Positions 37,261-64,000 of a stretch of DNA of 64,000 nucleotides are shown piece by piece (positions within the stretch are counted from its first letter, which is position 1; every line of letters begins with the position of its first letter). The notes beneath the pieces were generated by a model that was not told the DNA's origin, searched no databases, and was given only the letters and a program-made list of their open reading frames with translations. The DNA is taken from contig NZ_WJXZ01000014.1 in assembly GCF_009668025.1 (NCBI RefSeq), positions 1,260,448 to 1,324,447 of the forward strand, written 5' to 3'. Made by a program: the position numbers and the translations under genes. The DNA is from Larkinella terrae (GTDB lineage Bacteria > Bacteroidota > Bacteroidia > Cytophagales > Spirosomataceae).

Positions 37261-38928
37261 ATGCAACATAAAGTTCTGAAAGTACACCCTGCCGATAATG
37301 TAATTGTGGCCCTGCAAAATTTCAAACCGGGCGAACAAATTGATTTTGAGGGTCAAACGTACACGCTGCCCATTGGCGTTGGCATTAAACATAAATTCGT
37401 AACCGAAGACCTGCAAACCGGTGACTCGGTTATTATGTACGGAGTTCTGGTTGGCAAGGCAACGCAACCGATCAAGCGGGGCGAACCCATTACAACGTTC
37501 AATTTGAAGCACGATGCCGATCATTACGGTATCGAAAAAAAACAACCGTATTCGTGGCAGCCGCCCGATGTGTCGGCCTGGAAAAACCGGACCTTCATGG
37601 GCTACCACCGGGCCGATGGGCAGGTGGGAACCGCCAATTACTGGCTCGTCGTGCCGCTGGTTTTCTGCGAAAACCGCAACATTCTGATCCTGAAAGATGC
37701 TTTTGAGCGGGAATTAGGCTACGCCCAATCGGAGATTTACCGCGAACAGGTCCACGAATTGCTGCAACTGTATAAAGTCGGCGACCTGGATCGGGTTCAT
37801 AAAATGGAAGCGTTCCTGGATCCCTCGCAGGTGCGGACGCTCGACGAACCGGTAACGAAGCGGCCGTTTAAAAACATTGACGGCATCAAGTTTCTGACGC
37901 ACGAAATGGGTTGTGGCGGCACGCGGCAGGATTCCGAAGCCTTGTGCGGTCTGTTTGCCGGTTTTATCAATAACCCCAACGTGGTTGGTGTCACGGTTTT
38001 GAGTTTGGGTTGTCAGCATACGCAAACGTCGATGCTGGAAGACGAGGTTCGGAAACGGAATCCGAAATTCAACAAACCGATGCTGATATTCGAACAGCAG
38101 GACGGCACCGAATACGCAATGCTGACCAACGCCATTCGCGAAACGTTTCTGGGGTTGATCGAAGCGAATAAAATTGAGCGGAAACCGGCGCCCCTGAGTG
38201 CGCTGACTGTCGGATTGAAATGTGGTGGTTCAGACGGTTTTTCGGGCCTTTCGGCCAACCCGGCCATCGGACATCTATCGGATATTCTGGTCACGCTCGG
38301 AGCCAAAACCGTGCTGGCGGAGTTTCCGGAACTGAACGGCGTGGAGCAGGAACTGATCAACCGCTCGACTTCGGACGAAAAAGCCCTGAAATTCATTCAC
38401 CTCATGCAGGATTATTCGGCCAAAGCCGAAGCCGTGGGTTCCGGTTTTGACATGAATCCGTCGCCGGGAAATATTCGGGATGGGTTGATTACCGACGCCA
38501 TTAAGTCGGCGGGAGCGGCCAAAAAAGGCGGCACTTCCCCCGTTACCGACGTTTTGAATTACACCGAACCGGCTACCACGCCCGGCCTGAACCTCCTCTG
38601 CACCCCGGGCAATGACGTGGAAGCGACGACTGGTATGGCGGGTTCGGGTACGAATATCATTCTGTTTACTACTGGTTTGGGTACGCCAACGGGAAATCCG
38701 ATTTGTCCGGTTGCCAAGATTTCGACCAATACTGCCCTGCTCCGGCGAATGCCCGACGTCATCGATTTCGACTGCGGCCCGATCATCGAAGGAGAACAAA
38801 CCATTGAAGCCAACGCCGAAGAAATGCTCGAATACGTCATCCGGCTGGCCAGTGGCGAAGTGAAAACCAAAGCCCAACAACTGGGTCAGGACGATTTTAT
38901 TCCCTGGAAACGGGGCGTTTCACTTTAA
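37261..38928 (+). CDS. UxaA/GarD-family sugar-acid dehydratase, probable L-fuconate dehydratase
   Basis: The 555-residue protein has an N-terminal SAF domain (residues 1-100; VGIKHKFVTEDLQTGDSVIMYGV) and the large altronate/galactarate dehydratase domain: GYHRADGQVGTANYWLVVP, HEMGCGGTRQDSEALC, GLKCGGSDGFSGLSANPA, LCTPGNDVEATTGMAGSG and FTTGLGTPTGNP. Family members dehydrate aldonates or aldarates. Since the window encodes every other step of oxidative L-fucose degradation but no enolase-type fuconate dehydratase, I infer that this enzyme makes 2-keto-3-deoxy-L-fuconate. Altronate remains possible, but no other uronate genes are seen. Confidence 0.8.
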   Translation: MQHKVLKVHPADNVIVALQNFKPGEQIDFEGQTYTLPIGVGIKHKFVTEDLQTGDSVIMYGVLVGKATQPIKRGEPITTFNLKHDADHYGIEKKQPYSWQPPDVSAWKNRTFMGYHRADGQVGTANYWLVVPLVFCENRNILILKDAFERELGYAQSEIYREQVHELLQLYKVGDLDRVHKMEAFLDPSQVRTLDEPVTKRPFKNIDGIKFLTHEMGCGGTRQDSEALCGLFAGFINNPNVVGVTVLSLGCQHTQTSMLEDEVRKRNPKFNKPMLIFEQQDGTEYAMLTNAIRETFLGLIEANKIERKPAPLSALTVGLKCGGSDGFSGLSANPAIGHLSDILVTLGAKTVLAEFPELNGVEQELINRSTSDEKALKFIHLMQDYSAKAEAVGSGFDMNPSPGNIRDGLITDAIKSAGAAKKGGTSPVTDVLNYTEPATTPGLNLLCTPGNDVEATTGMAGSGTNIILFTTGLGTPTGNPICPVAKISTNTALLRRMPDVIDFDCGPIIEGEQTIEANAEEMLEYVIRLASGEVKTKAQQLGQDDFIPWKRGVSL

Positions 38929-38946
38929 TTTTATTGAGTGATTTTG

Positions 38947-39002
38947 TGATTGAGTGATTGAGCGAGTTTTAAAAGATTCGCGTCACTCAATCACTCAATC
39001 GC
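38947..39002. repeat. Inverted repeat of GATTGAGTGATTGAG words
   Basis: GATTGAGTGATTGAG words at 38947-38966 are complementary to CTCAATCACTCAATC words at 38982-39002, around a short loop. It lies between two same-direction pathway genes. The same words recur at 60877-60960. Confidence 0.8.
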
Positions 39003-39022
39003 TCATTCACACAATAATAAAG

Positions 39023-39796
39023 ATGTTTAGCTTAAAAGATAAAGTTGCCATCATTACGGGTGGGGCCAGTGGGATTGGGCTGGCGATTTCGCAGACGTTT
39101 GCGCAGGCGGGTGCGTTGGTTCACATCCTTGAATTGAATACTGATCTGGCGAAAACCGTGGCGGAAGAAATCAACGCTACGGGTGGTCGCGCGTACGCGC
39201 ACGCGGTCGATGTGTCGAATCAGGCACAGGTGATCGAGGTAATTGGGCAGGTTGCCGCGGGCGGACCCATCAACATCTTGGTCAACAACGCCGGTATTTC
39301 CCACATCGGAACGGTGGAAACCACCACCGAAGCCGACTTCGACCGCGTTTTTACGGTCAATGTGAAAGGCGCTTACAACTGTTTGTATGCCACCATTCCC
39401 CACTTGAAAGCCAATGGCGGGGGCGTCGTGCTGAACATGGCGTCGATTGCGGCCACGGTGGGCATTCCCGACCGGTTTGCCTATTCGATGACCAAAGGCG
39501 CGGTGGTGTCGATGACGTTGTCGGTGGCGAAGGATTACCTGAAACACAACATTCGCTGCAACTGCATTTCGCCCGCCCGGGTTCACACACCCTTTGTGGA
39601 TGGTTTTATCGCGAAAACGTATCCCGGAAAAGAAGCCGAAATGTTTGCCAAACTGGCGGCCACGCAGCCAATTGGCCGGATGGCAAAACCGATCGAGATT
39701 GCCGCCCTGGCCCTCTATCTCTGTTCGGATGAAGCCGGTTTTAATACGGGTTGTGATTATCCGATCGATGGCGGTTTTGTCCGCTTGAATAACTAA
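39023..39796 (+). CDS. SDR dehydrogenase, probable 2-keto-3-deoxy-L-fuconate dehydrogenase
   Basis: The 257-residue classical SDR has TGGASGIG (12-19), NNAG (88-91), Ser141 in NMASIAATVG, Tyr154-x-x-x-Lys158 in FAYSMTKGA, and CISPARVHTPFVDGFI. It follows the dehydratase in the same direction, so oxidation of its 2-keto-3-deoxy product to 2,4-diketo-3-deoxy-L-fuconate is the likely role. The upstream in-frame start at 38954 lies inside the inverted repeat and is rejected. Confidence 0.82.
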   Translation: MFSLKDKVAIITGGASGIGLAISQTFAQAGALVHILELNTDLAKTVAEEINATGGRAYAHAVDVSNQAQVIEVIGQVAAGGPINILVNNAGISHIGTVETTTEADFDRVFTVNVKGAYNCLYATIPHLKANGGGVVLNMASIAATVGIPDRFAYSMTKGAVVSMTLSVAKDYLKHNIRCNCISPARVHTPFVDGFIAKTYPGKEAEMFAKLAATQPIGRMAKPIEIAALALYLCSDEAGFNTGCDYPIDGGFVRLNN

Positions 39797-39883
39797 AGAG
39801 ACAGGAGAGGTTAGAATTGAGACAGGAGACCGGTTTGCGGGGAGCAATTGGTCTCTTTTCTCACGTCTAACTTCTTGCTTCTT
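39795..39883. repeat. Imperfect inverted repeat
   Basis: AAGAGACAGGAGAGGTTAGA-type words at 39795-39831 are roughly 75 percent complementary to 39850-39883 (GGTCTCTTTTCTC and on). It begins at the stop of the SDR gene and abuts the long perfect hairpin that follows. Confidence 0.6.
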
Positions 39884-39932
39884 CCAACGCAAACGGGCGT
39901 ACCGGATATTCCGGTACGCCCGTTTGCGTTGG
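39884..39932. terminator. 23-bp perfect hairpin with 3-base loop
   Basis: Bases 39884-39906 and 39910-39932 are exact complements around the loop TAT; the stem includes AAACGGGCGTACCGGA. There is no long T tract after it, but its position after the SDR gene and before the SusC leader suits transcription termination or mRNA 3'-end protection. Confidence 0.75.
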
Positions 39933-40078
39933 GAAAAGTTTCCATTTACTATATTTTTTATAAAAAAACAATATCTAAATCATATTTAATAAATATTTTA
40001 TAGTATGTGCTTATATTTTAAAATATTTTATTAATCTTGTGTTAAATTTCTTGAACATCTATTACACTACATCTTTCT

Positions 40079-43000
40079 ATGGCAAAAAATCTACTGAGGC
40101 TTATTATCTTATGTTTGATAATAAGTACTCCCACGTTCGCGCAGACGATCACGGGCAGGGTGACGGCGAGTACCGACGGGCAGGCATTGCCGGGCGTTTC
40201 GATCCTGGTAAAAGGAACGACAATGGGTACTACGTCAGACGCGAGTGGCAAGTACAGTGTTTCTGCCGGTAAATCCGGAACGTTGGTTTTCTCTTTTATC
40301 GGTTACAAATCGAAAGAAGTAGCCATTGAAAACCGCTCCGTGATCGATATTACGCTGGACGAAGATGCCGGAATTCTGGACGAAGTGGTCGTTACGGCTT
40401 TCGGTGTTTCGCAGGAAAAACGCGCATTGGGTTACGCTACGGCAGTTGTTAACAACGAAGCCCTGGTTAAAACCGCATCGCCCAACTTTGCCACGGCACT
40501 TTACGGAAAAGCGCCCGGTGTAACGATCAATGCCACGCCGGGTGGTGCGACCAGTGCGGTGAGCATCAGCATCCGCGGGTTAAGCTCCATTACCGGTAAC
40601 ACGCAGCCCCTGATCGTAATGGACGGTATTCCCATTCGCAACGGCGAGGTTCGGAACAACGATTATTGGGGTGACCAACGCATTCGCGGAAACGGTCTGC
40701 TGGATTTGAACCCGGCCGATATCGAAAACCTCTCGATTCTGAAAGGTGCTTCAGCGGCCGCACTGTACGGTTCGGAAGCCGTGAACGGGGTCGTTCTGGT
40801 GACTACCAAACGCGGAAAAGCCGGAAAAGGGCTGGGCGTTGATTTCAGCGCAAGCTACAGCGTTGATAAAATTGCTTACCTGCCTCGCTATCAGAACGTC
40901 AGAGGTCCGGGTTACATGCTGAACTATTCGAATGGTGGTCAGGATGCCAACGGTTTTATCTCCTACGATACCAACGGCGACGGCGTGGGTGACACCCGGG
41001 GTTTGCTGAATGCGACGGTCAACTTCGGACCTAAATTTGACGGACAGCCGGTAATGGCGTTCGATGGTGTGATCCGTCCGTATTCTCCTTCCAACAACAG
41101 CTACGCTGATCTATTCCAGAACGCGAGCAGCTCGAACATCAACCTGGCGGTTTCGCAGGCCACGGACAAATCCAACCTGCGGTTTTCCTACACCCGCCAG
41201 GACAACGGAATGATCAGCTACAACGCGAAGAACAGCAAGAACATCATGAACCTGAACTCCAGCTTTCACATTAACAAGAAGCTGACGACGGATTTGATGG
41301 TGAACTTTGTGAACCAGACGACGCATAACCGCCCGTATAAAGTCGATCGGATGATCAACAACTTTACGGGGATGATGAACCGGTTTGAAAACGCCGACTG
41401 GTATTTTAACAAGTACCAAACCAGCCAGGGCTACAAGTTCGTAACCGGGACCAACCAGAGTCTGACGCCGGGTGAAAATATCATCCGCAATGGTTTCAAA
41501 TCGGATATCGGTGATTACGTGTGGAGTACGCGGGCCAACACCTACGATGAATACAGCAACCGCGTGATTGCCTCGTTGACGCAGAACTGGGAGATTATCG
41601 ACGGGTTAAACCTCCGGGGCCGGATCGGGACCGATATAACGTCGGAGCGGATTGAAGACAAGCAACGGAGTTCGATTCCTCTTGCCTTCGGTTATTCAGG
41701 TTCTTTTGCGATGAACAATAACCTGTACAATAATGTCTACGGTGACGTGTTGTTGAGCTATTCCCGGAAATTGAATACCGACATTACACTTTCGGCAAAA
41801 GCGGGTTACACGGCCAACAAGCAGTTAAATACTTTCGTAAGCCGATCGACGAACGGTGGTTTGAGCACGGAGAACTTCTTCGACATTTCGGCATCCGTAA
41901 ATACGGCAGGTGGTAGCAATACCCGCGATCGTTACGTCCGGGACGCTTACTTTGGAACGGTAAATTTTGATTACAAAGGCTCATTCTTTGTTGAAGGTAC
42001 AATCCGGAGAGACCGTACCTCGACGCTTATTTCGGGCAACAACGCCTTTACGTACCCGTCCGTGAACGCGAGTTTCGTATTCAGCGACTTGCTGGATCTG
42101 CCGGTGGCGGTTTCATACGGAAAACTGCGGGCATCTTACGGAATCGTAGGGAATTATCCGATTATTTACAGCGCCAACAACGCTTACAACCAGGGTAACC
42201 TGAGTTTACAGCAAACCGGTGGTAGTTCCGTATTGTATACGAACATCAGCAACGCCTACGGGAACGATAAAATCCGTCCGGAGCAAAAACGGGAATATGA
42301 ATTCGGTCTGGAAGCCCGGTTTTTCAAAAACCGCCTGGGCTTAGACCTGTCGTATTATAATGCGCAGATCGTCGATCAGATTCTGCCGTTGTCAATTGCT
42401 GCCAGCTCGGGTGCCAGAACGGTTCTGGCCAACATCGGTACGCTGAGAAACCAGGGTGTGGAACTGGCCCTGAATTACTCACCCATTAAAGGCGCCGGGC
42501 TGAATGACTTCAACTGGGATATTATTCTGAACCTGGCTAAAAACAGTAACAAGGTAGAAAAGCTGGCCAACGGTTCGACGGAGCTACTCCACGCGGATTA
42601 CGACGGAAACGCGGCTCAGTTGCGGTCGGTTGTCGGGCAACCGATGGGTGATATTTACGCGCACGGTATCCTTAAAAATGCCAGTGGACAGCCTGTCGTT
42701 GGAACGAATGGTCTGTATCAACTGGATGGCGCTAACTGGATCAAAGTTGGAAATGCGATGCCGAAACTGACGGGCGGTTTGATCAACAGCGTGAGCTATA
42801 AAGGCTTTAACCTGGATGTCGTGACGGACTTCCGGTACGGTGGTTATATCATGCCGACCGGTATCAACTGGTTGACTTCCAGAGGGTTGACGGAAGAAAG
42901 CTTGACGGCAATGGACGCGGAACACGGCGGCTTGAGCTATTACATTGATGCCAACGGCAAAGGAGTTCAGACGTCGGCAGCCGCCGGACCAAACGGTCAG

Positions 43001-43402
43001 GTTGTTTACCACGACGGGATGCTGATGAGCGGGGTTCTTGCCAACGGGGAAGCCAATACCAATGTAGTTTCTCAGGCTACCTATTACAATGCAACCTACA
43101 ACTGGGGTGGACCGCAGTACGGCAACGCCCGCTACGAGCTGTTCGTGAAGGAGAATTCCTACATCAAGATGCGGGAAATTTCACTGGGCTACCGGATTCC
43201 GGCCAACTTCACCCGGCGCATTGGCACTCAGAATCTGACGCTGTCGGTGTTTGGACGGAACCTGTTCTTCATTTACCGGACCATCAAGGATCTGGATGCG
43301 GAACAGACCAACTCCAGTACCCGGTGGACGGATAACATCAGCAACGCTGGTAACAACCCGTCATTCCGGACGATGGGCGTGATGCTGAGAGCCAGTTTCT
43401 AA
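40079..43402 (+). CDS. SusC/RagA-family TonB-linked outer-membrane transporter
   Basis: The 1107-residue protein has a signal peptide (LLRLIILCLIISTPTFA), a carboxypeptidase-regulatory-like domain (ITGRVTASTDGQALPGVSIL), a TonB-box-like DEVVVTAFGVSQEKRALGYA, a plug (SISIRGLSSITGNTQPLIVM) and a long barrel ending RTMGVMLRASF. The SusD partner follows after 19 bases. The 146 bases before it are very AT-rich, as usual for sus leaders. I infer import of fucose-containing oligosaccharides from the surrounding catabolic genes. Confidence 0.93.
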   Translation: MAKNLLRLIILCLIISTPTFAQTITGRVTASTDGQALPGVSILVKGTTMGTTSDASGKYSVSAGKSGTLVFSFIGYKSKEVAIENRSVIDITLDEDAGILDEVVVTAFGVSQEKRALGYATAVVNNEALVKTASPNFATALYGKAPGVTINATPGGATSAVSISIRGLSSITGNTQPLIVMDGIPIRNGEVRNNDYWGDQRIRGNGLLDLNPADIENLSILKGASAAALYGSEAVNGVVLVTTKRGKAGKGLGVDFSASYSVDKIAYLPRYQNVRGPGYMLNYSNGGQDANGFISYDTNGDGVGDTRGLLNATVNFGPKFDGQPVMAFDGVIRPYSPSNNSYADLFQNASSSNINLAVSQATDKSNLRFSYTRQDNGMISYNAKNSKNIMNLNSSFHINKKLTTDLMVNFVNQTTHNRPYKVDRMINNFTGMMNRFENADWYFNKYQTSQGYKFVTGTNQSLTPGENIIRNGFKSDIGDYVWSTRANTYDEYSNRVIASLTQNWEIIDGLNLRGRIGTDITSERIEDKQRSSIPLAFGYSGSFAMNNNLYNNVYGDVLLSYSRKLNTDITLSAKAGYTANKQLNTFVSRSTNGGLSTENFFDISASVNTAGGSNTRDRYVRDAYFGTVNFDYKGSFFVEGTIRRDRTSTLISGNNAFTYPSVNASFVFSDLLDLPVAVSYGKLRASYGIVGNYPIIYSANNAYNQGNLSLQQTGGSSVLYTNISNAYGNDKIRPEQKREYEFGLEARFFKNRLGLDLSYYNAQIVDQILPLSIAASSGARTVLANIGTLRNQGVELALNYSPIKGAGLNDFNWDIILNLAKNSNKVEKLANGSTELLHADYDGNAAQLRSVVGQPMGDIYAHGILKNASGQPVVGTNGLYQLDGANWIKVGNAMPKLTGGLINSVSYKGFNLDVVTDFRYGGYIMPTGINWLTSRGLTEESLTAMDAEHGGLSYYIDANGKGVQTSAAAGPNGQVVYHDGMLMSGVLANGEANTNVVSQATYYNATYNWGGPQYGNARYELFVKENSYIKMREISLGYRIPANFTRRIGTQNLTLSVFGRNLFFIYRTIKDLDAEQTNSSTRWTDNISNAGNNPSFRTMGVMLRASF

Positions 43403-43421
43403 TTCTAACTTGATCTTAAAA

Positions 43422-45020
43422 ATGAAAAAAATATCAATCTTATTAGTAGCCGGGTTGCTCCTGGGAACCGTGTCCTGCAAGGAATCCGAGTTTGCCGAAG
43501 CGTATCCAAATCCGGCCAAAATTTCGGAATCGACCGTTGAAAAGCAGTTTACCGGCGTGTTGTATTCCAACCGTGAGTATGTTCTGCCGGGCTATACGCA
43601 CTACTTTACGACGCTGCGGCTTTCCCTCAATCCGTACACCCAGGCGATTGGTCGGTTGAATCAATCCGGTCTGTACGTTCCGGGCTCCGCAGGGGTCGAA
43701 AACGTGTGGTACAGCTACTACGATATGATGGCCCAGTATCGGGAACTGCAAAAAATCTACGCTTCCAAACCGGCGGATCAACAGGCCGATCGTAAAATTT
43801 TCATGCTGGCAGCTACGGTTTACGTCTATGATCACACGCAACGGCTTGTTGACGTTCACGGCGCGATTCCATTTACTCAGGCTGGTATGCTGAGCACCAA
43901 CGGTGGAGAGTATGAAAAGTCGACGGCGAAATTCGATACTGCCGAGAGCATTTACGCTTTTATGCTGGATGATCTGAAGCGCATCGCCACCGAACTGAAC
44001 GGCATTACGCTGAACGCCGGGTATCAGAAATCGTTTCAGACGCAGGATTTCATCAACAAAGGTGACATCACAGCCTGGAAACGGTATACGAACTCGTTGC
44101 GGCTACGCATGCTGAACCGCGTATCGGATGTTGAAAGCATGAAAGCACGGTCTAATTCCGAAATCGCGGAGATCCTGGGCAATGCCGCGACGTATCCAAT
44201 TGTGGAAACCAACGCGCAGAACATCCAGATCAACGTGTTCGACATCAACACCGACATCAACTCGAAAGGGTTCCAGGCCGGTTTGGCTTCGGATGGCTGG
44301 TATGGAAATACGGCAGGTAAGGCAATGATCGACAACATGAACGCCAATAAAGATCCGCGTTTGCCGATTCTGTTCGAGCCGGGTGCCAATGCCGCCGGGA
44401 AATTCAATGGAATCGATCCGCTGGCGACCGAAGCCGTGCAAACCGCTCAGTTCAACGCCGGACAAGTTGCCATTTACAACCGGTATACGACGAGCAATAA
44501 CCAGTTTTTCCCCGGTGTGATCATCAATGCTCCGCAGATGAACCTCATCAAGGCGGAATATTATTTGCGGACGGGGAACGATGCGCTGGCAAAAACCGCC
44601 TACGAAACCGGCATTACGCAGTCGGTGGAATTCTACAACAAGATTCTGTCGCTGACCAACGCGACCGGAATTACGGGTTCCACGATTCCAACGCCGGCAA
44701 CGTCCGCTTCCGTGGCTGCTTACCTCGCGGGTGATGGCGTAAACTGGAGCAAGGCAACGACCAATGCCCAGAAACTGAGCCTGATCGCGACGCAGAAATG
44801 GCTGCATTACAACGTGGTTCAACCCTACGAAAACTGGGCCGATCTGCGCCGTCTGGACATGCCAGTATTGAGCTTCCAGACTGATAACGCCAATAACCAG
44901 ACGCTGCCGCCGGTAAAATGGACCATTCCGGGTAACGAGGTTACCTATAACACGGCGAATTATGAGACTGTTCGTGCCACGGATAAGCTGACCACCAAGC
45001 TATTCTGGGATGTGAAATAA
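43422..45020 (+). CDS. SusD/RagB-family surface glycan-binding lipoprotein
   Basis: The 532-residue lipoprotein (LLLGTVSCK, Cys19) has SusD-type features: NVWYSYYDMMAQYRELQKIY, YDHTQRLVDVHGAIPFTQAG, the LKRIATELNG helix and YENWADLRRLDMPVLS near the C-terminus. It resembles the SusD-like nutrient-binding group (PF12771 type). It caps the SusC barrel above. The ATG at 43422 fits the signal; an earlier in-frame ATG at 43410 adds four residues. Confidence 0.9.
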   Translation: MKKISILLVAGLLLGTVSCKESEFAEAYPNPAKISESTVEKQFTGVLYSNREYVLPGYTHYFTTLRLSLNPYTQAIGRLNQSGLYVPGSAGVENVWYSYYDMMAQYRELQKIYASKPADQQADRKIFMLAATVYVYDHTQRLVDVHGAIPFTQAGMLSTNGGEYEKSTAKFDTAESIYAFMLDDLKRIATELNGITLNAGYQKSFQTQDFINKGDITAWKRYTNSLRLRMLNRVSDVESMKARSNSEIAEILGNAATYPIVETNAQNIQINVFDINTDINSKGFQAGLASDGWYGNTAGKAMIDNMNANKDPRLPILFEPGANAAGKFNGIDPLATEAVQTAQFNAGQVAIYNRYTTSNNQFFPGVIINAPQMNLIKAEYYLRTGNDALAKTAYETGITQSVEFYNKILSLTNATGITGSTIPTPATSASVAAYLAGDGVNWSKATTNAQKLSLIATQKWLHYNVVQPYENWADLRRLDMPVLSFQTDNANNQTLPPVKWTIPGNEVTYNTANYETVRATDKLTTKLFWDVK

Positions 45021-53626: not shown

Positions 53627-53640
53627 TTACTGAAGTGAAA

Positions 53641-56734: not shown

Positions 56735-56756
56735 GGCGAATCAAAATCCATTTCTA

Positions 56757-56790: not shown

Positions 56791-56806
56791 TCCGGTTCTT
56801 ACGCTT

Positions 56807-56814
56807 TATTTTTG
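56807..56814 (+). promoter_or_regulatory. Putative -7 box for the fucose catabolic operon
   Basis: TATTTTTG matches TAnnTTTG, 59 bases before the FAH-family gene; no clear -33 TTG. It would drive the gene series 56873 to about 62966. Confidence 0.45.
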
Positions 56815-56872
56815 CGCGCAAGGTTATAAGCCGCCGGTTTTTCTCTTTATTCAAAAAAGTAAACCCTCCATA

Positions 56873-57727: not shown

Positions 57728-57798
57728 ATGAACAATTAAAAATGAACAATGAACTAGTAACTGAAAGGCTGTTCATTGTTCATTTTTAATTGTTCATT
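57727..57798. repeat. Perfect 28-bp-arm inverted repeat
   Basis: Arms 57727-57754 and 57771-57798 are exact complements around a 16-base loop, made of words AATGAACAAT and TTAAAAATG. It begins at the FAH stop codon and ends just before the lactonase ATG. Confidence 0.9.
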
Positions 57799-57801
57799 AT
57801 A

Positions 57802-58638
57802 ATGTATAAAAACATGACAATTGATTCTCATCAGCATTTCTGGTTCTACAATCCGGAGCGGGACAGTTGGATTACGGAAGATATGCAACGGATTCGGCGG
57901 GACTTTTTACCCGCCGATCTGGAACCGGTTTTGAAACAGAACGGCATCGATGGCTGCGTGGCGGTTCAGGCCGATCAGTCGGAGGCAGAAACACTGTTTT
58001 TGCTTCAGCTGGCCGAAGCCTACGCGTTCATCCGGGGCGTTGTCGGGTGGGTGGATTTGCGGGCCGAAAATCTGTACGATCGACTGGAATTTTTCTCGCA
58101 GTTTGAAGAGCTGAAAGGATTTCGACACGTCGTTCAGGGCGAGTCGGAAGACTTTATGATGCGCCCGGAATTCATTCGCGGTGTTCGGCAATTGGCGGCT
58201 TTTGACTTCACGTACGACATTCTGATTTACCCCAATCAACTGAAAGCCGCCCTGCACCTGGTGCGGACAGTTCCGGAAGTTCCGTTTATCATCGACCACC
58301 TGGCCAAACCCTATATCAAGGATAGGAAAATCGGCACCTGGTCGAATTACATGGCCGAGATTGCCAAAAATCCGAATGTGTATTGCAAAGTGTCGGGTAT
58401 GGTAACGGAAGCTGATTGGCAAAACTGGAAACCGGACGATTTCCGACCGTATTTGGATGTCGTTTTCGAACATTTTGGCCCGGACCGGGCGGTTTTTGGC
58501 TCCGATTGGCCCGTTTGTCTCGTGGCTGCGGAGTACGATCAGATGAAAAGCATTGTCGAGGATTATCTGAAACCGTGGGGCGAAGACGCACGGCAAAAGG
58601 TGTTTGGCGACAATGCCATTAAGTTTTATAATCTTTAA
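57802..58638 (+). CDS. Amidohydrolase, probable L-fuconolactonase
   Basis: The 278-residue COG3618-type amidohydrolase starts IDSHQHFWFYNPERDSWI with His10 and His12. It continues VVGWVDLRAENL, GFRHVVQGESEDFM, FIIDHLAKPYI and CKVSGMV, and ends with VFGSDWPVC supplying the catalytic Asp. It opens L-fucono-lactone to L-fuconate. ATG 57814 is an alternative start that removes four residues. Confidence 0.85.
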   Translation: MYKNMTIDSHQHFWFYNPERDSWITEDMQRIRRDFLPADLEPVLKQNGIDGCVAVQADQSEAETLFLLQLAEAYAFIRGVVGWVDLRAENLYDRLEFFSQFEELKGFRHVVQGESEDFMMRPEFIRGVRQLAAFDFTYDILIYPNQLKAALHLVRTVPEVPFIIDHLAKPYIKDRKIGTWSNYMAEIAKNPNVYCKVSGMVTEADWQNWKPDDFRPYLDVVFEHFGPDRAVFGSDWPVCLVAAEYDQMKSIVEDYLKPWGEDARQKVFGDNAIKFYNL

Positions 58639-58735
58639 TACGCACGGATCGGGCGTGGCTACGCTTAAGTTCGTACCATTTTTTATTCACCATTCTTACC
58701 AGAAACTTCATGGACTTTAGTCCGTGGGTACGTTT

Positions 58736-59518
58736 ATGAACCTGAACCTACAAGACAAAATAATCATCGTAACGGGCGGAGCAAAGGGCATTGGCGAGGG
58801 GATCTCGACCGTGCTGGCCGCCGAAGGTGCTATTCCGGTGATCATTGGGCGGAATGAAGCGGACAATCAGAAAGCGGTTTCGGCCATCACGGCCGCGGGT
58901 GGCAAAGCTTTCCAGATTGCTGCTGAACTGACCAAACCGGACGAATGTAAAAAAGCCGTTGAGCAGACACTGGCGCAGTTTGGCCGGATCGACGGCCTGG
59001 TGAACAATGCGGGCGTTAACGATGGGGTTGGCCTTGAGAAAGGTGATTATGAGCGGTTTATGCAATCACTTCATAAGAACATGGTTCATTATTATTTGCT
59101 GGCCCATTACGCATTGCCCTCCCTAAAAGAATCCAAGGGAGCCATTGTCAACATCACTTCCAAAACCGCCGAAACCGGTCAGGGAAATACCTCGGCGTAT
59201 GCTGCGGCCAACGGCGGTCGCAACGCCCTGACCCGCGAGTGGGCGGTTGAGTTGCTGCCGTACAGCATTCGCGTGAATGCCGTTGTAGTGTCGGAATCGT
59301 GGACTCCCTTGTATGAAAACTGGATCAAGACGTTTGATAATCCGCAGGAAAAACTGGACAGCATTGTATCGAAAATACCGCTGGAAAAACGGATGACAAC
59401 GCCGGAGGAAATTGCCAACATGGTGGTCTTTTTGCTGTCCGATAAATCCAGCCACACGACGGGCCAATTGATCTATGTCGATGGGGGCTATGTCCACCTG
59501 GATCGCGCGCTGACGTAA
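58736..59518 (+). CDS. SDR, probable L-fucose dehydrogenase with Tyr-x-x-x-Asn site
   Basis: The 260-residue SDR has TGGAKGIG (13-20), NNAG (90-93) and NITSKTAETGQGNTSAYAAA. The classical Tyr-x-x-x-Lys is Tyr155-A-A-A-Asn159 here, so the usual catalytic Lys is missing. Later ALTREWAVELLPYSIRVNAV and ESWTPLYENWI fit the fucose-dehydrogenase-like group as I recall it. It should oxidise L-fucose to L-fucono-lactone. The in-frame GTG at 58724 adds four residues. Confidence 0.8.
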   Translation: MNLNLQDKIIIVTGGAKGIGEGISTVLAAEGAIPVIIGRNEADNQKAVSAITAAGGKAFQIAAELTKPDECKKAVEQTLAQFGRIDGLVNNAGVNDGVGLEKGDYERFMQSLHKNMVHYYLLAHYALPSLKESKGAIVNITSKTAETGQGNTSAYAAANGGRNALTREWAVELLPYSIRVNAVVVSESWTPLYENWIKTFDNPQEKLDSIVSKIPLEKRMTTPEEIANMVVFLLSDKSSHTTGQLIYVDGGYVHLDRALT

Positions 59519-59591
59519 TCAAGAGTGATTGAGTGGGCTGCTAACCTGCTGATTGTGGGCCAATTTCAACTTCCTAATTCCCTGACTTTTC

Positions 59592-60890
59592 ATGGCATCC
59601 GTTCCATCTTCAAGTACCGCCAAAGTTTCCAGCTCGACGGGCAGTTATACGCTGGCGTTCGCGCTGGTGACGAGCTTGTTCTTCCTGTGGGCCTTCGTCC
59701 ATAATCTGGAGCCCATTCTGATTCCCCACCTCAAAAAAGCCTGTCAACTAACTGATTTACAGTCGGCCCTGATTGACTCAGCGGTTTATCTGGGTTATTT
59801 CATTATGGCACTACCGGCCGGTTACGTCATGAAAAAGTACGGTTACCAACGGGGCATTATCGCGGGTCTGCTGATGTACGCTGCGGGCGCTTTCCTGTTC
59901 GTTCCGGCCGCCGATACGCGGATGTACGGTTTTTTTCTGGCGGCTTTGTTCATCATTGCGTCGGGTTGCGCGTTTCTGGAAACGGCGGCTAACCCGTACG
60001 TAACCATTCTGGGAAATCCGGCGACGGCAACGACCCGGCTCAATTTTAGCCAGTCGTTCAACGGTTTGGGTGCATTTCTCGCACCGGTTGTGGGCGGAAA
60101 AGTGATTCTCAGCGGCATCGAACATTCCGAAGCTGAACTGACAGCCATGTCGACCGAGCAACTCAATAGCTACTTGCAATACGAAGCCAATCAGGTGAAA
60201 ATGCCGTACGTGGTCATTGGACTGGTGGTGGTGGCCGTTGCGGCCCTGTTTATGTTTACAAAACTGCCGGACATCAGCGATTCGGAAAAGAAAACGCCAT
60301 CGACGCTGGGTTCCGTGTTTCGGCACCGGCACCTGCGGTTGGGTGTCATTGCTCAGTTCTTTTACGTGGGAGCCCAGGTCTGCGTGACCAGCTTTTTCAT
60401 CCGTTTTGCCAAATTTTCCAGCGATGTTCCCGAAAAAACCGCTGCAGAATGGCTGGGCTGGGCGATGCTGGGCTTCCTGATCGGTCGTTTCATCGGCACC
60501 TACCTCATGCGGTTTATTCCGGCCAATCGGTTGCTGACAATCTACTCGCTGATCAGCGTTGGGCTGTTACTGGTCGCGATGACGATGAAATCCGACATTG
60601 CAGTTTGGGCCATTTTCGCGGTTCCCTTTTTCGAATCGATCATGTTCGCAACAATCTTTTCGCTGGGAATCAATCGGTTGGAGGAAGATACCGAGCTGGG
60701 CTCATCATTGCTCGTAATGGCCATTGCCGGTGGTGCCCTGTTCCCGGTCGCGATGGGATACATTTCCGACCAGAGCAACATCAAAGTCGCCTACATCGTA
60801 CCGCTGCTTTGCTTCCTGGTTGTCGCGTACTACGGCTGGAAAGGATATCAACCGGAAACCAATGAGTGGAATGGGCGAATGAGTGATTGA
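59592..60890 (+). CDS. fucP: L-fucose:proton symporter FucP (MFS)
   Basis: The 432-residue inner-membrane protein has twelve predicted helices. It begins FALVTSLFFLWAFVHNLEPIL and has FIIASGCAFLETAANPYVTI and NFSQSFNGLGAFLAP, signatures of the FucP family. It brings free L-fucose from the periplasm into the cell. Its last codons lie within an inverted repeat. Confidence 0.92.
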   Translation: MASVPSSSTAKVSSSTGSYTLAFALVTSLFFLWAFVHNLEPILIPHLKKACQLTDLQSALIDSAVYLGYFIMALPAGYVMKKYGYQRGIIAGLLMYAAGAFLFVPAADTRMYGFFLAALFIIASGCAFLETAANPYVTILGNPATATTRLNFSQSFNGLGAFLAPVVGGKVILSGIEHSEAELTAMSTEQLNSYLQYEANQVKMPYVVIGLVVVAVAALFMFTKLPDISDSEKKTPSTLGSVFRHRHLRLGVIAQFFYVGAQVCVTSFFIRFAKFSSDVPEKTAAEWLGWAMLGFLIGRFIGTYLMRFIPANRLLTIYSLISVGLLLVAMTMKSDIAVWAIFAVPFFESIMFATIFSLGINRLEEDTELGSSLLVMAIAGGALFPVAMGYISDQSNIKVAYIVPLLCFLVVAYYGWKGYQPETNEWNGRMSD

Positions 60891-60960
60891 GCGAATAGCT
60901 ACCGCAATTCAGTTAATTCAGAAGCTTGATCTTTGATCTATTCACTCAATCGCTCATTCA
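60877..60960. repeat. Inverted repeat overlapping the fucP stop
   Basis: GAATGAGTGATTGAGCGAAT words at 60877-60898 are complementary (20 of 22) to 60939-60960, with a 40-base loop. The left arm includes the final codons of fucP. The words match those of the element at 38947-39002. Confidence 0.85.
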
Positions 60961-60979
60961 CTCATTCAAAATTAAATCT

Positions 60980-61306
60980 ATGCGTTACTGCCTTGCTCTT
61001 GACCTCGTTGATGATCCGGTTTTAATTGCCGAGTACGAGAAATACCACGAAAAATTGCGACCCGAAATCGAAGAAAGCATTCGGTCGGCAGGAATTACCG
61101 AAATGGAGATTTACCGCATTGGCAACCGGCTTTTCATGATTATGGAAACGGATGAAACGTTCTCGTTTGAAAAGAAGACAGAAATGGACGCCGGAAACCC
61201 AAAAGTGCAGGAATGGGAAAATCTGATGTGGCGGTATCAACAGGCCTTGCCAATGGCAAAACCGGGTGAAAAATGGCTGTTGCTAAATAACATTTTTAAG
61301 CTTTAA
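60980..61306 (+). CDS. L-fucose/L-rhamnose mutarotase (RhaM family)
   Basis: The 108-residue protein starts MRYCLALDLVDDP and has the RhaM-type EYEKYHEKLRPEIEESI (His23), GNRLFMIMETDETF and WENLMWRYQQALPMAKPGEKW. It interconverts sugar anomers to speed entry into the fucose dehydrogenase reaction. ATG 60980 is preferred to the in-frame ATG at 60926, which lies in the inverted repeat. Confidence 0.88.
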   Translation: MRYCLALDLVDDPVLIAEYEKYHEKLRPEIEESIRSAGITEMEIYRIGNRLFMIMETDETFSFEKKTEMDAGNPKVQEWENLMWRYQQALPMAKPGEKWLLLNNIFKL

Positions 61307-61382
61307 CGGACCGTTGCCAGTTAGAAAACGTCAGTAACGGGATTTGTGCGTATTTTTGGCAGAAACCAGCCCAGGCGAAAGT

Positions 61383-62165
61383 ATGCGAATATTTCTCTTT
61401 CTTGCACTTCTGTCAATTGAATTTTTCCAGGAAGCGAATGCCCAGTCGACCGTTACCGTTCTGACGTACAACATTCACCACGGGACTAACGCGCAGGAAC
61501 ACAATACCATCGTTCAAATTGGCAGGTTGATTCGGGAATACAGCCCGGATATCATCGCCCTGCAGGAAGTGGACAGTGTGACGACCCGCAGCCGACGCCA
61601 GGATCATCTAGGGCAGCTGGCACGACTGACCTCGATGTTTCCGCTCTACGGCAAAGCCATCGATTTTCAAGGAGGTAAGTACGGGACAGCTATCTTATCG
61701 AAGTACCCTATCATTGCCAGCCAGAAGATGATGTTACCGAATCCGGATAAAACTGAACAACGGATTTTGCTTTGTGCGTACGTGGAGTTGCCGAATGAAA
61801 AAACGATCCGGTTTTGCAACTCGCACCTCGACCAGCAATCCCCGCTGAACCGGAATCTGCAACTGGCATTTATCGATAAAACGCTGGAAAACAGCATTCA
61901 ACCCGTAATCTGGTGCGGTGATTTCAACACCGACCCCGACGATCCGGAGATCGAAAAGCTGATGGACCGCTGGCGGGATGCCGGTAAAGATTCGCACACC
62001 TCGACGCTGGTGGGGACCGGGGCACGGATCGATTACGTCATGAGTCTGAAAAAAAGTGAACTGGAACTGACCCGATACCGGGTTTTAAATGTTCCTAAAC
62101 TGTCGGATCACTTGCCGGTTCTGGCAACGTACCGTTTCCGAAAACCCAAAAAAAATGGGCGGTAA
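61383..62165 (+). CDS. Exported endonuclease/exonuclease/phosphatase family protein
   Basis: The 260-residue protein has a signal peptide (FLALLSIEFFQEANA) and EEP motifs: LTYNIHHG, ALQEVDSVT, GDFNTDPDDPE and KLSDHLPVLATY. Such exported members act on phosphodiesters or phospholipid-like substrates; the actual substrate is unknown. A TATTTTTG box lies at 61351. Its presence within the fucose series may be incidental. Confidence 0.84.
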   Translation: MRIFLFLALLSIEFFQEANAQSTVTVLTYNIHHGTNAQEHNTIVQIGRLIREYSPDIIALQEVDSVTTRSRRQDHLGQLARLTSMFPLYGKAIDFQGGKYGTAILSKYPIIASQKMMLPNPDKTEQRILLCAYVELPNEKTIRFCNSHLDQQSPLNRNLQLAFIDKTLENSIQPVIWCGDFNTDPDDPEIEKLMDRWRDAGKDSHTSTLVGTGARIDYVMSLKKSELELTRYRVLNVPKLSDHLPVLATYRFRKPKKNGR

Positions 62166-62228
62166 TCGGATTACGGATCGATTTCGTTAATCCGGTTGAA
62201 ACCGCCCGACGTAAACTGCTCACTTACA

Positions 62229-62966
62229 ATGAAAGTCGCACTTTTTTTGCCGTGCTACGTTGACCAGTTTTACCCGAAAGTTGGCATCGCGACGCTCCAA
62301 CTGCTCGAAAAACTGGGTTGCACGGTAACCTACCCGCTCAACCAGACCTGCTGCGGGCAGCCGATGGCCAATTCTGGTTTTGAAAATCTGGCGCACGACT
62401 GCAATGAGTTATTTGTAACTAATTTTGGGGATAATTACGACGCGATCGTCTGTCCGTCAGGGAGTTGTGCGCTGCACATCAAGCACCACCTGCATTCGGA
62501 CAAACGCGAAGCCGATGCGCAGCAGATCCGCAGTCATATTTACGAGCTGACCGAATTTCTGACCGACGTGCTGAAAGTGGAGCAGTTACCGGCCCGGTTT
62601 CCGTATAAAGTGGGACTGCACCAGAGTTGTCACGGACAGCGCGGATTGCATCTTTCCCAGATGTCGGAACTGGTGGCAGCGCCCTATTCCAAACCGGAAA
62701 AGCTGTTGCACATGGTCGATGAGCTGGAGTTGATCAACCTGGAGCGGAAAGACGAATGCTGCGGTTTTGGCGGAACGTTCTGCGTGTTTGAAGAAGCGGT
62801 TTCGTCCCGAATGGGAGTTGATCGGGTGGAAGATCACGTTCGCAACGGAGCCGAAGTGCTGACCGGTGGAGATATGTCTTGTCTGATGCACCTGGAAGGG
62901 ATCGTTCGGCGGAAAAAATACCCGGTGAAGGTGATGCATATTGCCGAAATACTGAATCAGACGTAA
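62229..62966 (+). CDS. lutA: LutA-type (Fe-S)-binding subunit of L-lactate oxidation
   Basis: The 245-residue protein has two cysteine-rich CCG domains: TCCGQPMANSG at residues 40-50 and ECCGFGGTFCVF near 178, with YVDQFYPKVG upstream, as in LutA/YkgE. LutABC converts L-lactate to pyruvate. L-lactate is the expected product of the fucose pathway encoded just before. The lutB start lies at 63738, after an intervening toxin module. ATG 62229 is chosen over the TTG at 62196. Confidence 0.9.
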   Translation: MKVALFLPCYVDQFYPKVGIATLQLLEKLGCTVTYPLNQTCCGQPMANSGFENLAHDCNELFVTNFGDNYDAIVCPSGSCALHIKHHLHSDKREADAQQIRSHIYELTEFLTDVLKVEQLPARFPYKVGLHQSCHGQRGLHLSQMSELVAAPYSKPEKLLHMVDELELINLERKDECCGFGGTFCVFEEAVSSRMGVDRVEDHVRNGAEVLTGGDMSCLMHLEGIVRRKKYPVKVMHIAEILNQT

Positions 62967-63020
62967 CCGCTGAAAAACCGTCGAGGAGATTTTTCAACTG
63001 GAGGAAACCGATCAGAGCGA

Positions 63021-63596
63021 ATGCCGAATTTATATATTCTTGCGGGATGTAACGGCGCCGGAAAAACCACGGCGGCTTACACAATTCTGCCGGAAGTACT
63101 GAATTGTCGCGAGTTCGTCAATGCGGATGAGATAGCAAGGGGGTTATCGCCGTTTCAACCCGAAACCGTAGCGTTTGAAGCGGGGCGAATCATGTTGCAA
63201 CGGATTGATTATTTGCTTGAACACAACGTTGATTTTGCATTGGAAACGACGCTTTCGACGCGGTCTTACGTTCAGACAATCAAACGGGCGCAGGCAAAAG
63301 GGTATGAGGTTCGATTATTTTATGTTTGGCTGGAGTCTGTCGAAATTGCCAAAGAACGTGTAGCAATTCGGGTTTCAAAGGGAGGACACAATATTCCGCC
63401 TGATATTATTGAAAGGCGTTTTGAACGTAGTTTGGTTAACCTAATGTTACTGTATTTGCCTATATGTGATAATTGTTTAATTACGAACAATTCGTATGGT
63501 GAACTTCAGATTGTTGCAGAATTTACAATGGGCGAAGTAATTGATATAGTTGATGAAAAAGCCTGGCTAGGTATTCAACAGTATGGAAAAAAGTAA
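63021..63596 (+). CDS. Zeta-toxin-like kinase
   Basis: The 191-residue P-loop protein has GCNGAGKT at residues 9-16, FVNADEIARGLSPFQPE and FALETTLSTRSYVQTIKRA, matching zeta toxins/UDP-GlcNAc-kinase-like proteins. Its second half (63420-63590) is notably AT-rich and differs in codon use from lutA and lutB, which suggests acquisition. It overlaps the following small gene by 14 bases. Confidence 0.85.
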   Translation: MPNLYILAGCNGAGKTTAAYTILPEVLNCREFVNADEIARGLSPFQPETVAFEAGRIMLQRIDYLLEHNVDFALETTLSTRSYVQTIKRAQAKGYEVRLFYVWLESVEIAKERVAIRVSKGGHNIPPDIIERRFERSLVNLMLLYLPICDNCLITNNSYGELQIVAEFTMGEVIDIVDEKAWLGIQQYGKK

Positions 63597-63738
63597 ATTA
63601 ACACCCGAAAGCCTGAAAGTCGTTGAAGGAATGCGGCTGGCATTCAAAAGGTTAGTTGAGAGGACGAAACGTGAAGATGGGGAGTTAGTAGTTTGGCGTG
63701 ATGGCAAAGTCGTCCGTGTAAAAGCAAAAGATTTGTAA
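63583..63738 (+). CDS. Small protein following the zeta toxin, possible antitoxin
   Basis: The 51-residue basic/acidic protein reads MEKSKLTPESLKVVEGMRLA, then FKRLVERTKREDGELVVWRD and ends KVVRVKAKDL. Overlap with the toxin gene upstream and with the lutB start (TAATG) downstream implies coupled translation. Similar short partners accompany zeta-like kinases in Bacteroidota as I recall; the antitoxin role is inference. Confidence 0.7.
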   Translation: MEKSKLTPESLKVVEGMRLAFKRLVERTKREDGELVVWRDGKVVRVKAKDL

Positions 63739-64000
63739 TGATGAATCACTCCGAGGCCGCCGAGAAATTTACAGAAGACGTTGATCGGACCACCTGGCAC
63801 GATAAAACCTTGTGGTTTGTGCGTGAAAAACGCGATAAAGCGGTTTTTCAAATCCCGGAATGGGAAGCCTTACGCGAAGCCGCTTCCCGAATTAAGCATA
63901 ATGCCTTGTCCAACCTGGACGAATATCTTCTTGAGTTTGAGCAGAATGCAGTCAAAAACGGGGTCAAGGTTCACTGGGCCGCCGATGGGCACGAACACAA
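63738..64000 (+). CDS. lutB: LutB-type iron-sulfur protein (3' truncated)
   Basis: The frame runs off the window after about 87 residues. The visible N-terminus (TLWFVREKRDKAVFQIPEWE, then LREAASRIKHNALSNLDEYL and NGVKVHWAADGHEH) matches the start of LutB-type lactate utilisation proteins, whose ferredoxin motifs lie further downstream. It starts at an ATG overlapping the preceding stop; ATG 63741 is one codon later. Confidence 0.82.
   Translation, partial: MMNHSEAAEKFTEDVDRTTWHDKTLWFVREKRDKAVFQIPEWEALREAASRIKHNALSNLDEYLLEFEQNAVKNGVKVHWAADGHEH

What the first reader, a model, noticed from the sequence alone, without database searches (positions are those of the whole stretch)
37261..64000. 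Complete oxidative L-fucose route from surface glycan to lactate oxidation
One region encodes two SusCD importers, GH29 fucosidase plus esterase, FucP, mutarotase, fucose dehydrogenase, lactonase, UxaA-type dehydratase, keto-deoxy-fuconate SDR, FAH hydrolase and LutA/LutB. Each step of the non-phosphorylating route L-fucose to lactone to fuconate to 2-keto-3-deoxy to 2,4-diketo to pyruvate plus L-lactate has a candidate, and the lactate product has its own oxidising enzyme next door. Family assignments are from motifs; pathway coupling is inference.
Basis: partly seen in the sequence, partly recalled or inferred. Interest (0 to 1): 0.75.

Follow-up and report, generated by a model that had tools for sequence, protein, structure and literature searches.

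The report
Oxidative L-fucose pathway with lactate oxidation
This bacterium's chromosome carries a full set of genes to cut L-fucose off glycans, oxidise it without phosphorylation to pyruvate and L-lactate, and then oxidise the lactate; the pathway itself is known, and the less expected part is that lactate-oxidising genes repeatedly travel with it.

Summary
Window 37261-64000 has a candidate for every step of the published non-phosphorylating L-fucose route 3: mutarotase, L-fucose dehydrogenase, lactonase, UxaA-type dehydratase, SDR, FAH hydrolase. It also holds FucP, GH29, two SusCD pairs and LutA/LutB; LutC lies just past the window end. The two weakest assignments were tested. The SDR carries the R-R-F-T ligand pattern, with the published spacing, of an assayed type 4 2-keto-3-deoxyfuconate dehydrogenase from Sphingobacterium. 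The dehydratase cannot be assigned from sequence: of 54 long homologous loci 28 have fucose genes nearby and 26 do not, and 14 of those 26 have hexuronate genes. Here context favours fuconate: it is the genome's only such enzyme and adjoins the SDR in 8 of 8 congeners; altronate service is not excluded. No fucose isomerase was found. The lactate link is supported: lutA+lutB occur in 8 of 28 fucose-context loci and 0 of 26 others, in four gene orders. Weak points are the glycan end (SusCD2 is kept in 2 of 8 congeners) and FucP, which has Pro at the E. coli Asp46 position. New member of a known kind, with a modestly new extension.

The parts
35487..37136 (-). adenine deaminase, divergent neighbour of the dehydratase; conserved neighbour, not part of the pathway
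   Evidence: TIGR01178 590.8 bits, cut-off 472.5; next to uxaA in 8 of 8 congeners
37261..38928 (+). UxaA/GarD-family dehydratase, proposed L-fuconate dehydratase (FucC role)
   Evidence: PF20629 312 bits, PF04295, SAF; only PF20629 gene in the genome; beside the SDR in 8 of 8 congeners; substrate inferred from context
39023..39796 (+). SDR, proposed L-2-keto-3-deoxyfuconate 4-dehydrogenase, type 4 (FucF role); the listed ORF starts at GTG 38954, the likely start is ATG 39023
   Evidence: R151-R186-F195-T214 fits type 4 R-R-F-T with the published spacing; R and T positions placed on 4dqx
40079..43402 (+). SusC-type TonB-dependent importer 1
   Evidence: TIGR04056 592.4 bits, cut-off 368.25; follows the SDR in 7 of 8 congeners
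43410..45020 (+). SusD-like lipoprotein 1
   Evidence: PF12771 169.2 bits; 7 base gap from SusC1
45099..46664 (-). FG-GAP repeat protein with a CxxCH motif seen by eye in the translation, role unknown
   Evidence: PF13517; same place in 7 of 8 congeners
46907..48484 (-). SusD-like lipoprotein 2
   Evidence: PF12741 465.2 bits
48503..51757 (-). SusC-type TonB-dependent importer 2, divergent from GH29
   Evidence: TIGR04056 626.5 bits; kept in 2 of 8 congeners; distant SusCD pairs (about 30% identity) stand there in 5
52187..53626 (+). GH29 alpha-L-fucosidase with a signal peptide-like start (by eye)
   Evidence: PF01120 327.6 bits; best solved relative 6gn6, E 4.7e-57
53635..56109 (+). large esterase/S9-type hydrolase with a signal peptide-like start (by eye), 8 bases after GH29
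   Evidence: PF00326 and PF00756, just over their cut-offs; gap
56873..57727 (+). FAH-family 2,4-diketo-3-deoxy-L-fuconate hydrolase (FucG role)
   Evidence: NF053535 338.4 bits, cut-off 500; 8gsr L-2,4-diketo-3-deoxyrhamnonate hydrolase, E 4e-76
57790..58638 (+). L-fucono-1,5-lactonase (FucB role)
   Evidence: NF052480 269.4 bits, cut-off 400; 4dlf, E 2.7e-54
58724..59518 (+). L-fucose 1-dehydrogenase, SDR (FucA role)
   Evidence: NF052481 432.9 bits, over its cut-off of 300; 4gkb, E 2e-93
59592..60890 (+). FucP-type fucose:H+ symporter
   Evidence: TIGR00885 385.5 bits, over its cut-off; 3o7q E 2.6e-94; Asp46 position is Pro
60926..61306 (+). RhaM-family sugar mutarotase, proposed L-fucose mutarotase (FucM role)
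   Evidence: PF05336 106.8 bits; under the rhamnose equivalog, TIGR02625 23.6 against 99.6; no solved relative at E 0.01
61344..62165 (+). endonuclease/exonuclease/phosphatase-family protein, function in the operon unknown
   Evidence: PF03372 92.2 bits; same slot in 8 of 8 congeners, and in the Dyadobacter and Telluribacter loci
62196..62966 (+). LutA-type protein, L-lactate oxidation
   Evidence: PF02754 98.2 bits
63021..63596 (+). Zeta_toxin/AAA_33-domain gene between lutA and lutB
   Evidence: PF06414 55.3 bits; similar gene in 5 of 8 congeners
63738..64000 (+). LutB-type protein, cut by the window end; full frame is L001:3738-5102, LutC is L001:5177-5794
   Evidence: LUD, Fer4, PF11870 LutB_C; under TIGR00273

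Best explanation
The region is a complete non-phosphorylating (oxidative) L-fucose utilisation system. The GH29 fucosidase, possibly with the esterase, releases L-fucose from a fucosylated, perhaps acylated glycan outside the cytoplasm (inferred). FucP imports L-fucose. The mutarotase supplies the right anomer. The SDR dehydrogenase makes L-fuconolactone, the amidohydrolase opens it to L-fuconate, and the UxaA-type dehydratase makes 2-keto-3-deoxy-L-fuconate. The type 4 SDR oxidises that at C4, and the FAH hydrolase cleaves the diketo acid to pyruvate and L-lactate. LutABC oxidises the L-lactate to a second pyruvate. On this reading no lactaldehyde and no phosphorylated intermediate is formed. 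Shown here: the genes, their families, the SDR ligand pattern, conserved clustering, absence of a fucose isomerase match. Inferred: substrate of the dehydratase, cargo of the SusCD pairs, expression, flux.
For: Family assignments. Solved relatives: 8gsr, 4gkb, 4dlf, 3o7q. SDR: type 4 pattern and spacing; of 48 SDR hits of at least 55% identity in loci L033-L159 (a few genomes occur twice), 48 have R-R at the first two positions, 48 have F or Y at the third, 44 have T or S at the fourth (exact R-R-F-T in 24), and none of the 76 hits under 45% has R-R-F or R-R-Y. No PF07881 fucose isomerase match in the 99.94%-complete genome. Synteny: fah-lactonase-fdh-fucP-rhaM-EEP-lutA-lutB-lutC in 8 of 8 congeners; uxaA-sdr adjacent in 8 of 8; compact blocks in other families and in Acidobacteriota. 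lutA+lutB (at least 42% identity) in 8 of 28 fucose-context UxaA loci against 0 of 26 others, Fisher p 0.0045, rows not phylogenetically independent. Distances between tblastn hit ends of lut and fucose genes, read: about 10-110 bases in L113, L121 and L135.
Against: Lactonase and FAH score under their curated cut-offs and LutB under TIGR00273. The only NCBIfam model among those printed that the SDR passes is a broad one, NF005559 'glucose 1-dehydrogenase' (219.4 against 215). 14 of 26 non-fucose UxaA loci carry uxaC or a uxaB-like gene, so this lineage also serves altronate, and the window genome has uxaC plus one mannitol_dh-family reductase that could feed it. FucP lacks an acid at the Asp46 position. 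In 15 of the 31 loci outside the genus (L049-L079) the fucose dehydrogenase has no SDR, FAH or lactonase of at least 42% identity in the fetched stretch (counted; some stretches are short). In G008 the two halves lie 1.8 Mb apart. None of the genes scanned in 37261-64000 is a transcription regulator; an ECF-type sigma factor lies outside at 34735-35325. No expression data exist here.
Confidence: 0.88

Rival explanations
1. The dehydratase is a D-altronate dehydratase of hexuronate catabolism, or serves both altronate and fuconate.
For: 14 of 26 non-fucose long UxaA loci, and 1 of 28 fucose ones, carry uxaC or a uxaB-like gene. A quick tree needs at least 7 switches between the two contexts. 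The genome holds uxaC and one mannitol_dh-family enzyme, which could be UxaB or UxuB, and no other UxaA. A characterised family member acts on D-arabinonate (100%), D-altronate (12%) and L-fuconate (5.6%) (PMC6336799, passages).
Against: The genome's uxaC and mannitol_dh-family gene sit with UxuA, which fits the mannonate route. The window dehydratase is next to the type 4 SDR in 8 of 8 congeners, and in a supported clade of 10 rows of which 9 have fucose context and 1 is a short contig.
Confidence: 0.2
2. The system mainly serves another sugar of related configuration, such as L-galactose or D-arabinose, or L-rhamnose through the shared diketo acid.
For: FAH best model and best structure are named for the rhamnonate diketo acid, which is the same compound as the fucose one (PMC11199699 introduction). 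L-fucose dehydrogenases can also accept D-arabinose (PMC6336799 passages).
Against: The dehydrogenase passes the L-fucose dehydrogenase cut-off. GH29 and FucP lie in the same region. The mutarotase is under the rhamnose equivalog cut-off. The SDR has the 2-keto-3-deoxyfuconate ligand pattern.
Confidence: 0.1
3. The lut genes are a general lactate-utilisation operon that happens to lie downstream.
For: The lut genes are separated from the mutarotase by an EEP-family gene and lutA from lutB by a Zeta_toxin-domain gene. 20 of 28 fucose-context loci have no lutA+lutB in the fetched stretch.
Against: A second lutABC sits elsewhere in the genome (contig C4, 68, 69 and 43% identical). lutABC lies among fucose genes in four orders and in 0 of 26 non-fucose loci.
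Confidence: 0.12

Closest known systems
Non-phosphorylating L-fucose pathway, route 3 (FucM-A-B-C-F-G), with the SDR identified in Xanthomonas, Herbaspirillum, Acidovorax and, as type 4, Sphingobacterium mizutaii (PMC11199699: introduction and section 10 read, passages of the rest)
   Same: Same reactions; the SDR has the same type 4 pattern as the assayed S. mizutaii enzyme; dehydrogenase and lactonase match solved structures recalled to be the characterised Burkholderia enzymes
   Different: Dehydratase is UxaA-type, not the enolase type of Xanthomonas; lutABC follows in the same run of genes; GH29 and SusCD pairs are linked
Campylobacter jejuni fucose cluster (PMC12566272: passages seen)
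   Same: A UxaA-type protein is hypothesised for L-fuconate to 2-keto-3-deoxyfuconate, with an SDR fucose dehydrogenase and an amidohydrolase in the cluster
   Different: There the dehydratase is split into two genes, and the cluster has dapA and aldehyde dehydrogenase pieces; an aldolase ending in place of SDR plus FAH is recalled
lldEFG/lutABC in rhamnose utilisation (PMC3870299 passages; PMC11596606 passages)
   Same: L-lactate oxidation genes in deoxyhexose regulons or operons, so that the pathway ends in pyruvate
   Different: Those are phosphorylating rhamnose routes in other phyla; here it is the non-phosphorylating fucose route in Bacteroidota and, weakly, Acidobacteriota
Gut Bacteroides fucose operon (composition recalled: isomerase, kinase, aldolase)
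   Same: Phylum and substrate
   Different: The window genome has no fucose isomerase match

Membership tests
Non-phosphorylating L-fucose pathway, route 3 | L-fucose 1-dehydrogenase | tested here: met
   NF052481 432.9 bits, cut-off 300
Non-phosphorylating L-fucose pathway, route 3 | L-fuconolactonase | tested here: inconclusive
   Only NCBIfam hit at E 0.001 is NF052480, near full length, but 269.4 against a cut-off of 400; 4dlf E 2.7e-54
Non-phosphorylating L-fucose pathway, route 3 | L-fuconate dehydratase | tested here: inconclusive
   UxaA/GarD family confirmed; homologues split between fucose and hexuronate contexts; context favours fuconate
Non-phosphorylating L-fucose pathway, route 3 | L-2-keto-3-deoxyfuconate 4-dehydrogenase with one of the type 1-4 ligand patterns | tested here: met
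   R-R-F-T at 151/186/195/214; the last three are a constant +3 from 183/192/211 of the assayed type 4 enzyme; S141-Y154-K158 present
Non-phosphorylating L-fucose pathway, route 3 | Diketo-deoxyfuconate hydrolase of the FAH family | tested here: inconclusive
   Best model NF053535, 338.4 against 500; best structure 8gsr
Non-phosphorylating L-fucose pathway, route 3 | Catalysis of each step | not testable with these tools
   No assay or expression data
Phosphorylating fucose pathway (isomerase-kinase-aldolase) | L-fucose isomerase | tested here: not met
   No PF07881 match in the genome; the control search rings in 3 of 14 genomes, E. coli among them
LutABC lactate oxidation | CCG protein, LUD+4Fe-4S protein and LUD protein in the order A-B-C | tested here: met
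   PF02754; PF02589+PF13183+PF11870; PF02589
LutABC lactate oxidation | Score over the curated model TIGR00273 (a yardstick, not a defining feature) | tested here: not met
   419.9 against a cut-off of 444.8; the second copy 411.6; Pfam LutB_C is over its own cut-off
FucP symporter | Curated fucP model | tested here: met
   TIGR00885 385.5, cut-off 280.4
FucP symporter | Asp46 and Glu135 of E. coli FucP (their importance is recalled) | tested here: inconclusive
   Glu135 kept; Asp46 position is Pro with Glu just before it
Polysaccharide utilisation locus | SusCD pair linked to a glycoside hydrolase | tested here: met
   SusC/SusD and GH29 present; cargo untested; SusCD2 kept in 2 of 8 congeners

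The most novel reading that the evidence does not exclude
In Bacteroidota (and perhaps Acidobacteriota) the oxidative fucose pathway has been assembled several times by exchanging one UxaA-type dehydratase lineage between hexuronate and fucose service, and by repeatedly capturing lutABC as a dedicated last step, so that fucose is taken to two pyruvates without lactaldehyde and without secreting lactate. This would be an aerobic alternative to the microcompartment route, which handles toxic lactaldehyde.
Probability: 0.5. Interest if true: 0.45.

Novelty: new member of a known kind. Interest (0 to 1): 0.32.

Why it matters
It gives a clear genetic model for oxidative fucose use in environmental Bacteroidota, a phylum where automated annotation of catabolic genes was found much less accurate than in Pseudomonadota (PMC11378808, passages). 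It links fucose release to lactate oxidation, so the claim is directly testable by induction and deletion. It also shows that close UxaA homologues cannot be annotated without their neighbours, which matters for automated pathway calls.

Tried and rejected
Assigning the SDR by NCBIfam failed: 228 families match and the only cut-off passed among the 25 printed is a broad one; the published ligand pattern was used instead. Assigning the dehydratase by residues failed: only two columns differ by a 70% majority between the fucose and hexuronate sets (H253, D504). On 5 independent pairs, too few to reach 0.05, H253 tends to go with the fucose context and D504 does not clearly. An enolase-type dehydratase as the missing partner in loci with a lone fucose dehydrogenase was not found: the C1 enolase gene has no tblastn hit at 1e-20 in the 127 loci L033-L159. 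Ten proteins scanned from 6 of the 15 lone-dehydrogenase loci gave mixed neighbours, among them aldehyde dehydrogenase with a distant FAH protein, GH29 and DoxX, and no common theme. Promoter and terminator scans of 56100-64000 gave 13 promoter-like sites against 8.0 (sd 2.7) in shuffles and 11 terminator-like against 11.3, which decides nothing. Passages of papers on gut Bacteroidales fucose use and microcompartments did not show this arrangement. A text search for at least three of fucose, L-lactate, LutABC, fuconate and LldEFG listed 18 papers; none of the 18 holds fuconate together with LutABC or LldEFG, but a paper with only those two terms would not have been listed.


Full report
What was checked. 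The window lies in contig 6 of a 7.85 Mb genome that is 99.94% complete. Two genomes that the tool places in the same family have contigs with the same lengths as records of Telluribacter humicola and Emticicia sp. C21, so the organism is in or near the Spirosomataceae (inference). Genes were called from ORFs and the end of the operon was read beyond the window. 'Congeners' are the eight genomes G001-G008 that the tool calls same genus.

Anatomy. Block 1, + strand: UxaA-type dehydratase, SDR, SusC1, SusD1 (37261-45020). Between, on the - strand: an FG-GAP gene, SusD2 and SusC2 (45099-51757). Then + strand GH29 and a large esterase 8 bases apart, and a Uma2 gene on the - strand. Block 2, + strand: FAH, lactonase, fucose dehydrogenase, FucP, mutarotase, EEP-family protein, lutA, Zeta_toxin-domain gene, lutB, lutC, with gaps of 62, 85, 73, 35, 37, 30, 54, 141 and 74 bases.

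Step by step. L-fucose dehydrogenase passes its curated model and matches 4gkb at E 2e-93; that this is a characterised Burkholderia enzyme is recalled. The lactonase has one NCBIfam hit, L-fucono-1,5-lactonase, under its cut-off, and 4dlf at 2.7e-54. The dehydratase is of the UxaA/GarD superfamily, far from galactarate dehydratase itself (233 bits against 731). The FAH protein best matches 2,4-didehydro-3-deoxy-L-rhamnonate hydrolase, whose substrate is the same compound as the fucose intermediate because C4 loses its chirality (PMC11199699, introduction read). The mutarotase is of the RhaM family but is under the rhamnose-specific cut-off.

The SDR test. PMC11199699 (section 10 read) divides 2-keto-3-deoxyfuconate dehydrogenases into four types by four residues. 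Type 4, assayed from Sphingobacterium mizutaii, is R-R-F-T, with the last three at 183, 192 and 211 of that protein. The window SDR has R151, R186, F195 and T214, so the last three are a constant +3 away. Alignment to 4dqx places R151 on Arg170 and T214 on Arg231, the equivalents named in the paper (positions counted by hand on the printed alignment). In loci L033-L159, 48 SDR hits of at least 55% identity all carry R-R-F or R-R-Y, with T or S at the last place in 44 of 48 and exact R-R-F-T in 24; none fell between 45 and 55%; none of the 76 hits under 45% has this pattern. Against it: by NCBIfam the protein passes only a broad 'glucose 1-dehydrogenase' subfamily cut-off among the 25 models printed.

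The dehydratase. Of the 54 with at least 18 kb, 28 carry at least one of SDR, FAH, lactonase or dehydrogenase at 42% identity or more, and 26 carry none; the 26 shorter loci were left out of these counts. Of the 26 without, 14 carry uxaC or a uxaB-like gene; of the 28 with, 1 does (L109, whose only fucose gene was the SDR). On a quick tree of 93 rows the fucose and hexuronate contexts need at least 7 changes. Similarity alone therefore cannot name the substrate. For this genome context favours fuconate: single copy, beside the SDR in 8 of 8 congeners, a supported clade with fucose context, and a separate hexuronate locus that holds UxuA. That locus also holds the genome's one mannitol_dh-family reductase; were it a tagaturonate reductase, the window enzyme would be the only candidate for altronate too, so double service stays open. 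PMC6336799 (passages) reports that one member of the family accepts arabinonate, altronate, fuconate and galactonate. A 2019 paper on this family in L-fucose pathways is known to me here only by its title in a reference list. PMC12566272 (passages) says that C. jejuni is hypothesised to use a UxaA-type protein for the same step.

Alternative fucose route. No fucose isomerase family match was found. Five GH29 genes and three FucP-type genes over the cut-off lie in the genome.

Synteny. The dehydrogenase is found at E 1e-60 or better in 40 of 59 genomes searched. The nine genes fah, lactonase, fdh, fucP, rhaM, EEP, lutA, lutB and lutC lie together in 8 of 8 congeners. uxaA and sdr are adjacent in 8 of 8, and SusC1-SusD1 follows in 7 of 8. 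The dehydratase has one match at E 1e-60 in each congener; it lies on the same contig within about 38 kb of fdh in 7 and 1.8 Mb away in G008. SusCD2 is kept in 2 of 8; distant SusCD pairs (about 30% identity) occupy the place in 5 others. So SusCD1 has comparative support as part of the system and SusCD2 has little. In more distant genomes the set is compact: dehydratase to lutC within about 14 kb in L079, and dehydratase, SDR, FAH, lactonase and dehydrogenase together in Daejeonella, Olivibacter, Parapedobacter, Pontibacter, Algibacter and an acidobacterial MAG (L116, L125, L152, L124, L146, L101). Against: 15 of the 31 loci outside the genus (L049-L079) show no SDR, FAH or lactonase of at least 42% in the fetched stretch; some are short contigs, and G012 for one has its dehydratase elsewhere.

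Lactate. lutA and lutB (at least 42% identity) lie in 8 of 28 fucose-context loci and 0 of 26 others. Five of the 8 (four Dyadobacter, one Telluribacter) share the window's order, so independence is limited. The other three differ: lutABC before uxaA (L113; also L065), between sdr and fah (L121), between uxaA and fdh (L135). A weaker acidobacterial case (L129, 35-41%) follows fdh and was not counted. Among the 31 loci outside the genus, lutA and lutB appear in 4 at 57% or more and in 1 at 37-42%. The genome has a second lutABC on contig C4. Lactate genes in rhamnose regulons and operons are in print (PMC3870299 and PMC11596606, passages), so the principle is not new. The non-phosphorylating fucose case was not seen in the text searches made, which cover open-licence papers only and of which I saw listings and the passages named.

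Doubt about transport. The window FucP aligns over most of its length with 3o7q. At the E. coli Asp46 position it has Pro, preceded by Glu; Glu135 and Asn162 are kept. The same H-N-L-E-P motif is in all 8 congeners and 2 further loci; of the 20 other FucP-type proteins aligned, 2 have Asp there, in a stretch where the alignment is doubtful. The second FucP on C1 reads N-I-N-D there (by eye). Whether the Glu takes over the role is open.

Verdict. It is an ordinary pathway in kind, with a well-supported lactate extension; interest is moderate to low.

Noticed in passing
L163:2423-11269 (genome contig C1, about 914-923 kb): A second fucose-like locus: ECF-type sigma factor, GH29 with F5/8 type C domain, a second FucP over its cut-off with Asp46 kept, a RhaM-like mutarotase (48%), an SDR, an enolase-superfamily dehydratase and an AraC-type regulator. 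It may be a parallel enolase-type oxidative route for fucose or L-galactose.
   Followed up: partly
window 59592-60890: FucP with Pro at the E. coli Asp46 position and Glu just before it, shared by all 8 congeners.
   Followed up: partly
window 63021-63596: Zeta_toxin/AAA_33-domain gene between lutA and lutB, with a similar gene in 5 of 8 congeners at 34-79% identity.
   Followed up: partly
window 61344-62165: Endonuclease/exonuclease/phosphatase-family gene kept between mutarotase and lutA in 8 of 8 congeners and in Dyadobacter and Telluribacter loci; no role in the pathway is apparent.
   Followed up: partly
window 35487-37136: Adenine deaminase is a steady divergent neighbour of the dehydratase in 8 of 8 congeners and in 9 of 80 loci; reason unknown.
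   Followed up: no
window 45099-46664: FG-GAP repeat protein with a CxxCH motif, convergent with SusD1 in 7 of 8 congeners.
   Followed up: no
L081, Flavobacterium sp. SUN052 contig2: A record titled Flavobacterium carries the adenine deaminase-dehydratase-SDR block and falls with Rudanella and Fibrella in the tree: transfer, mislabel or contamination.
   Followed up: no
L001, downstream of the operon (beyond the window): Very long repetitive surface-protein-like frames lie downstream of the fucose-lactate genes.
   Followed up: no
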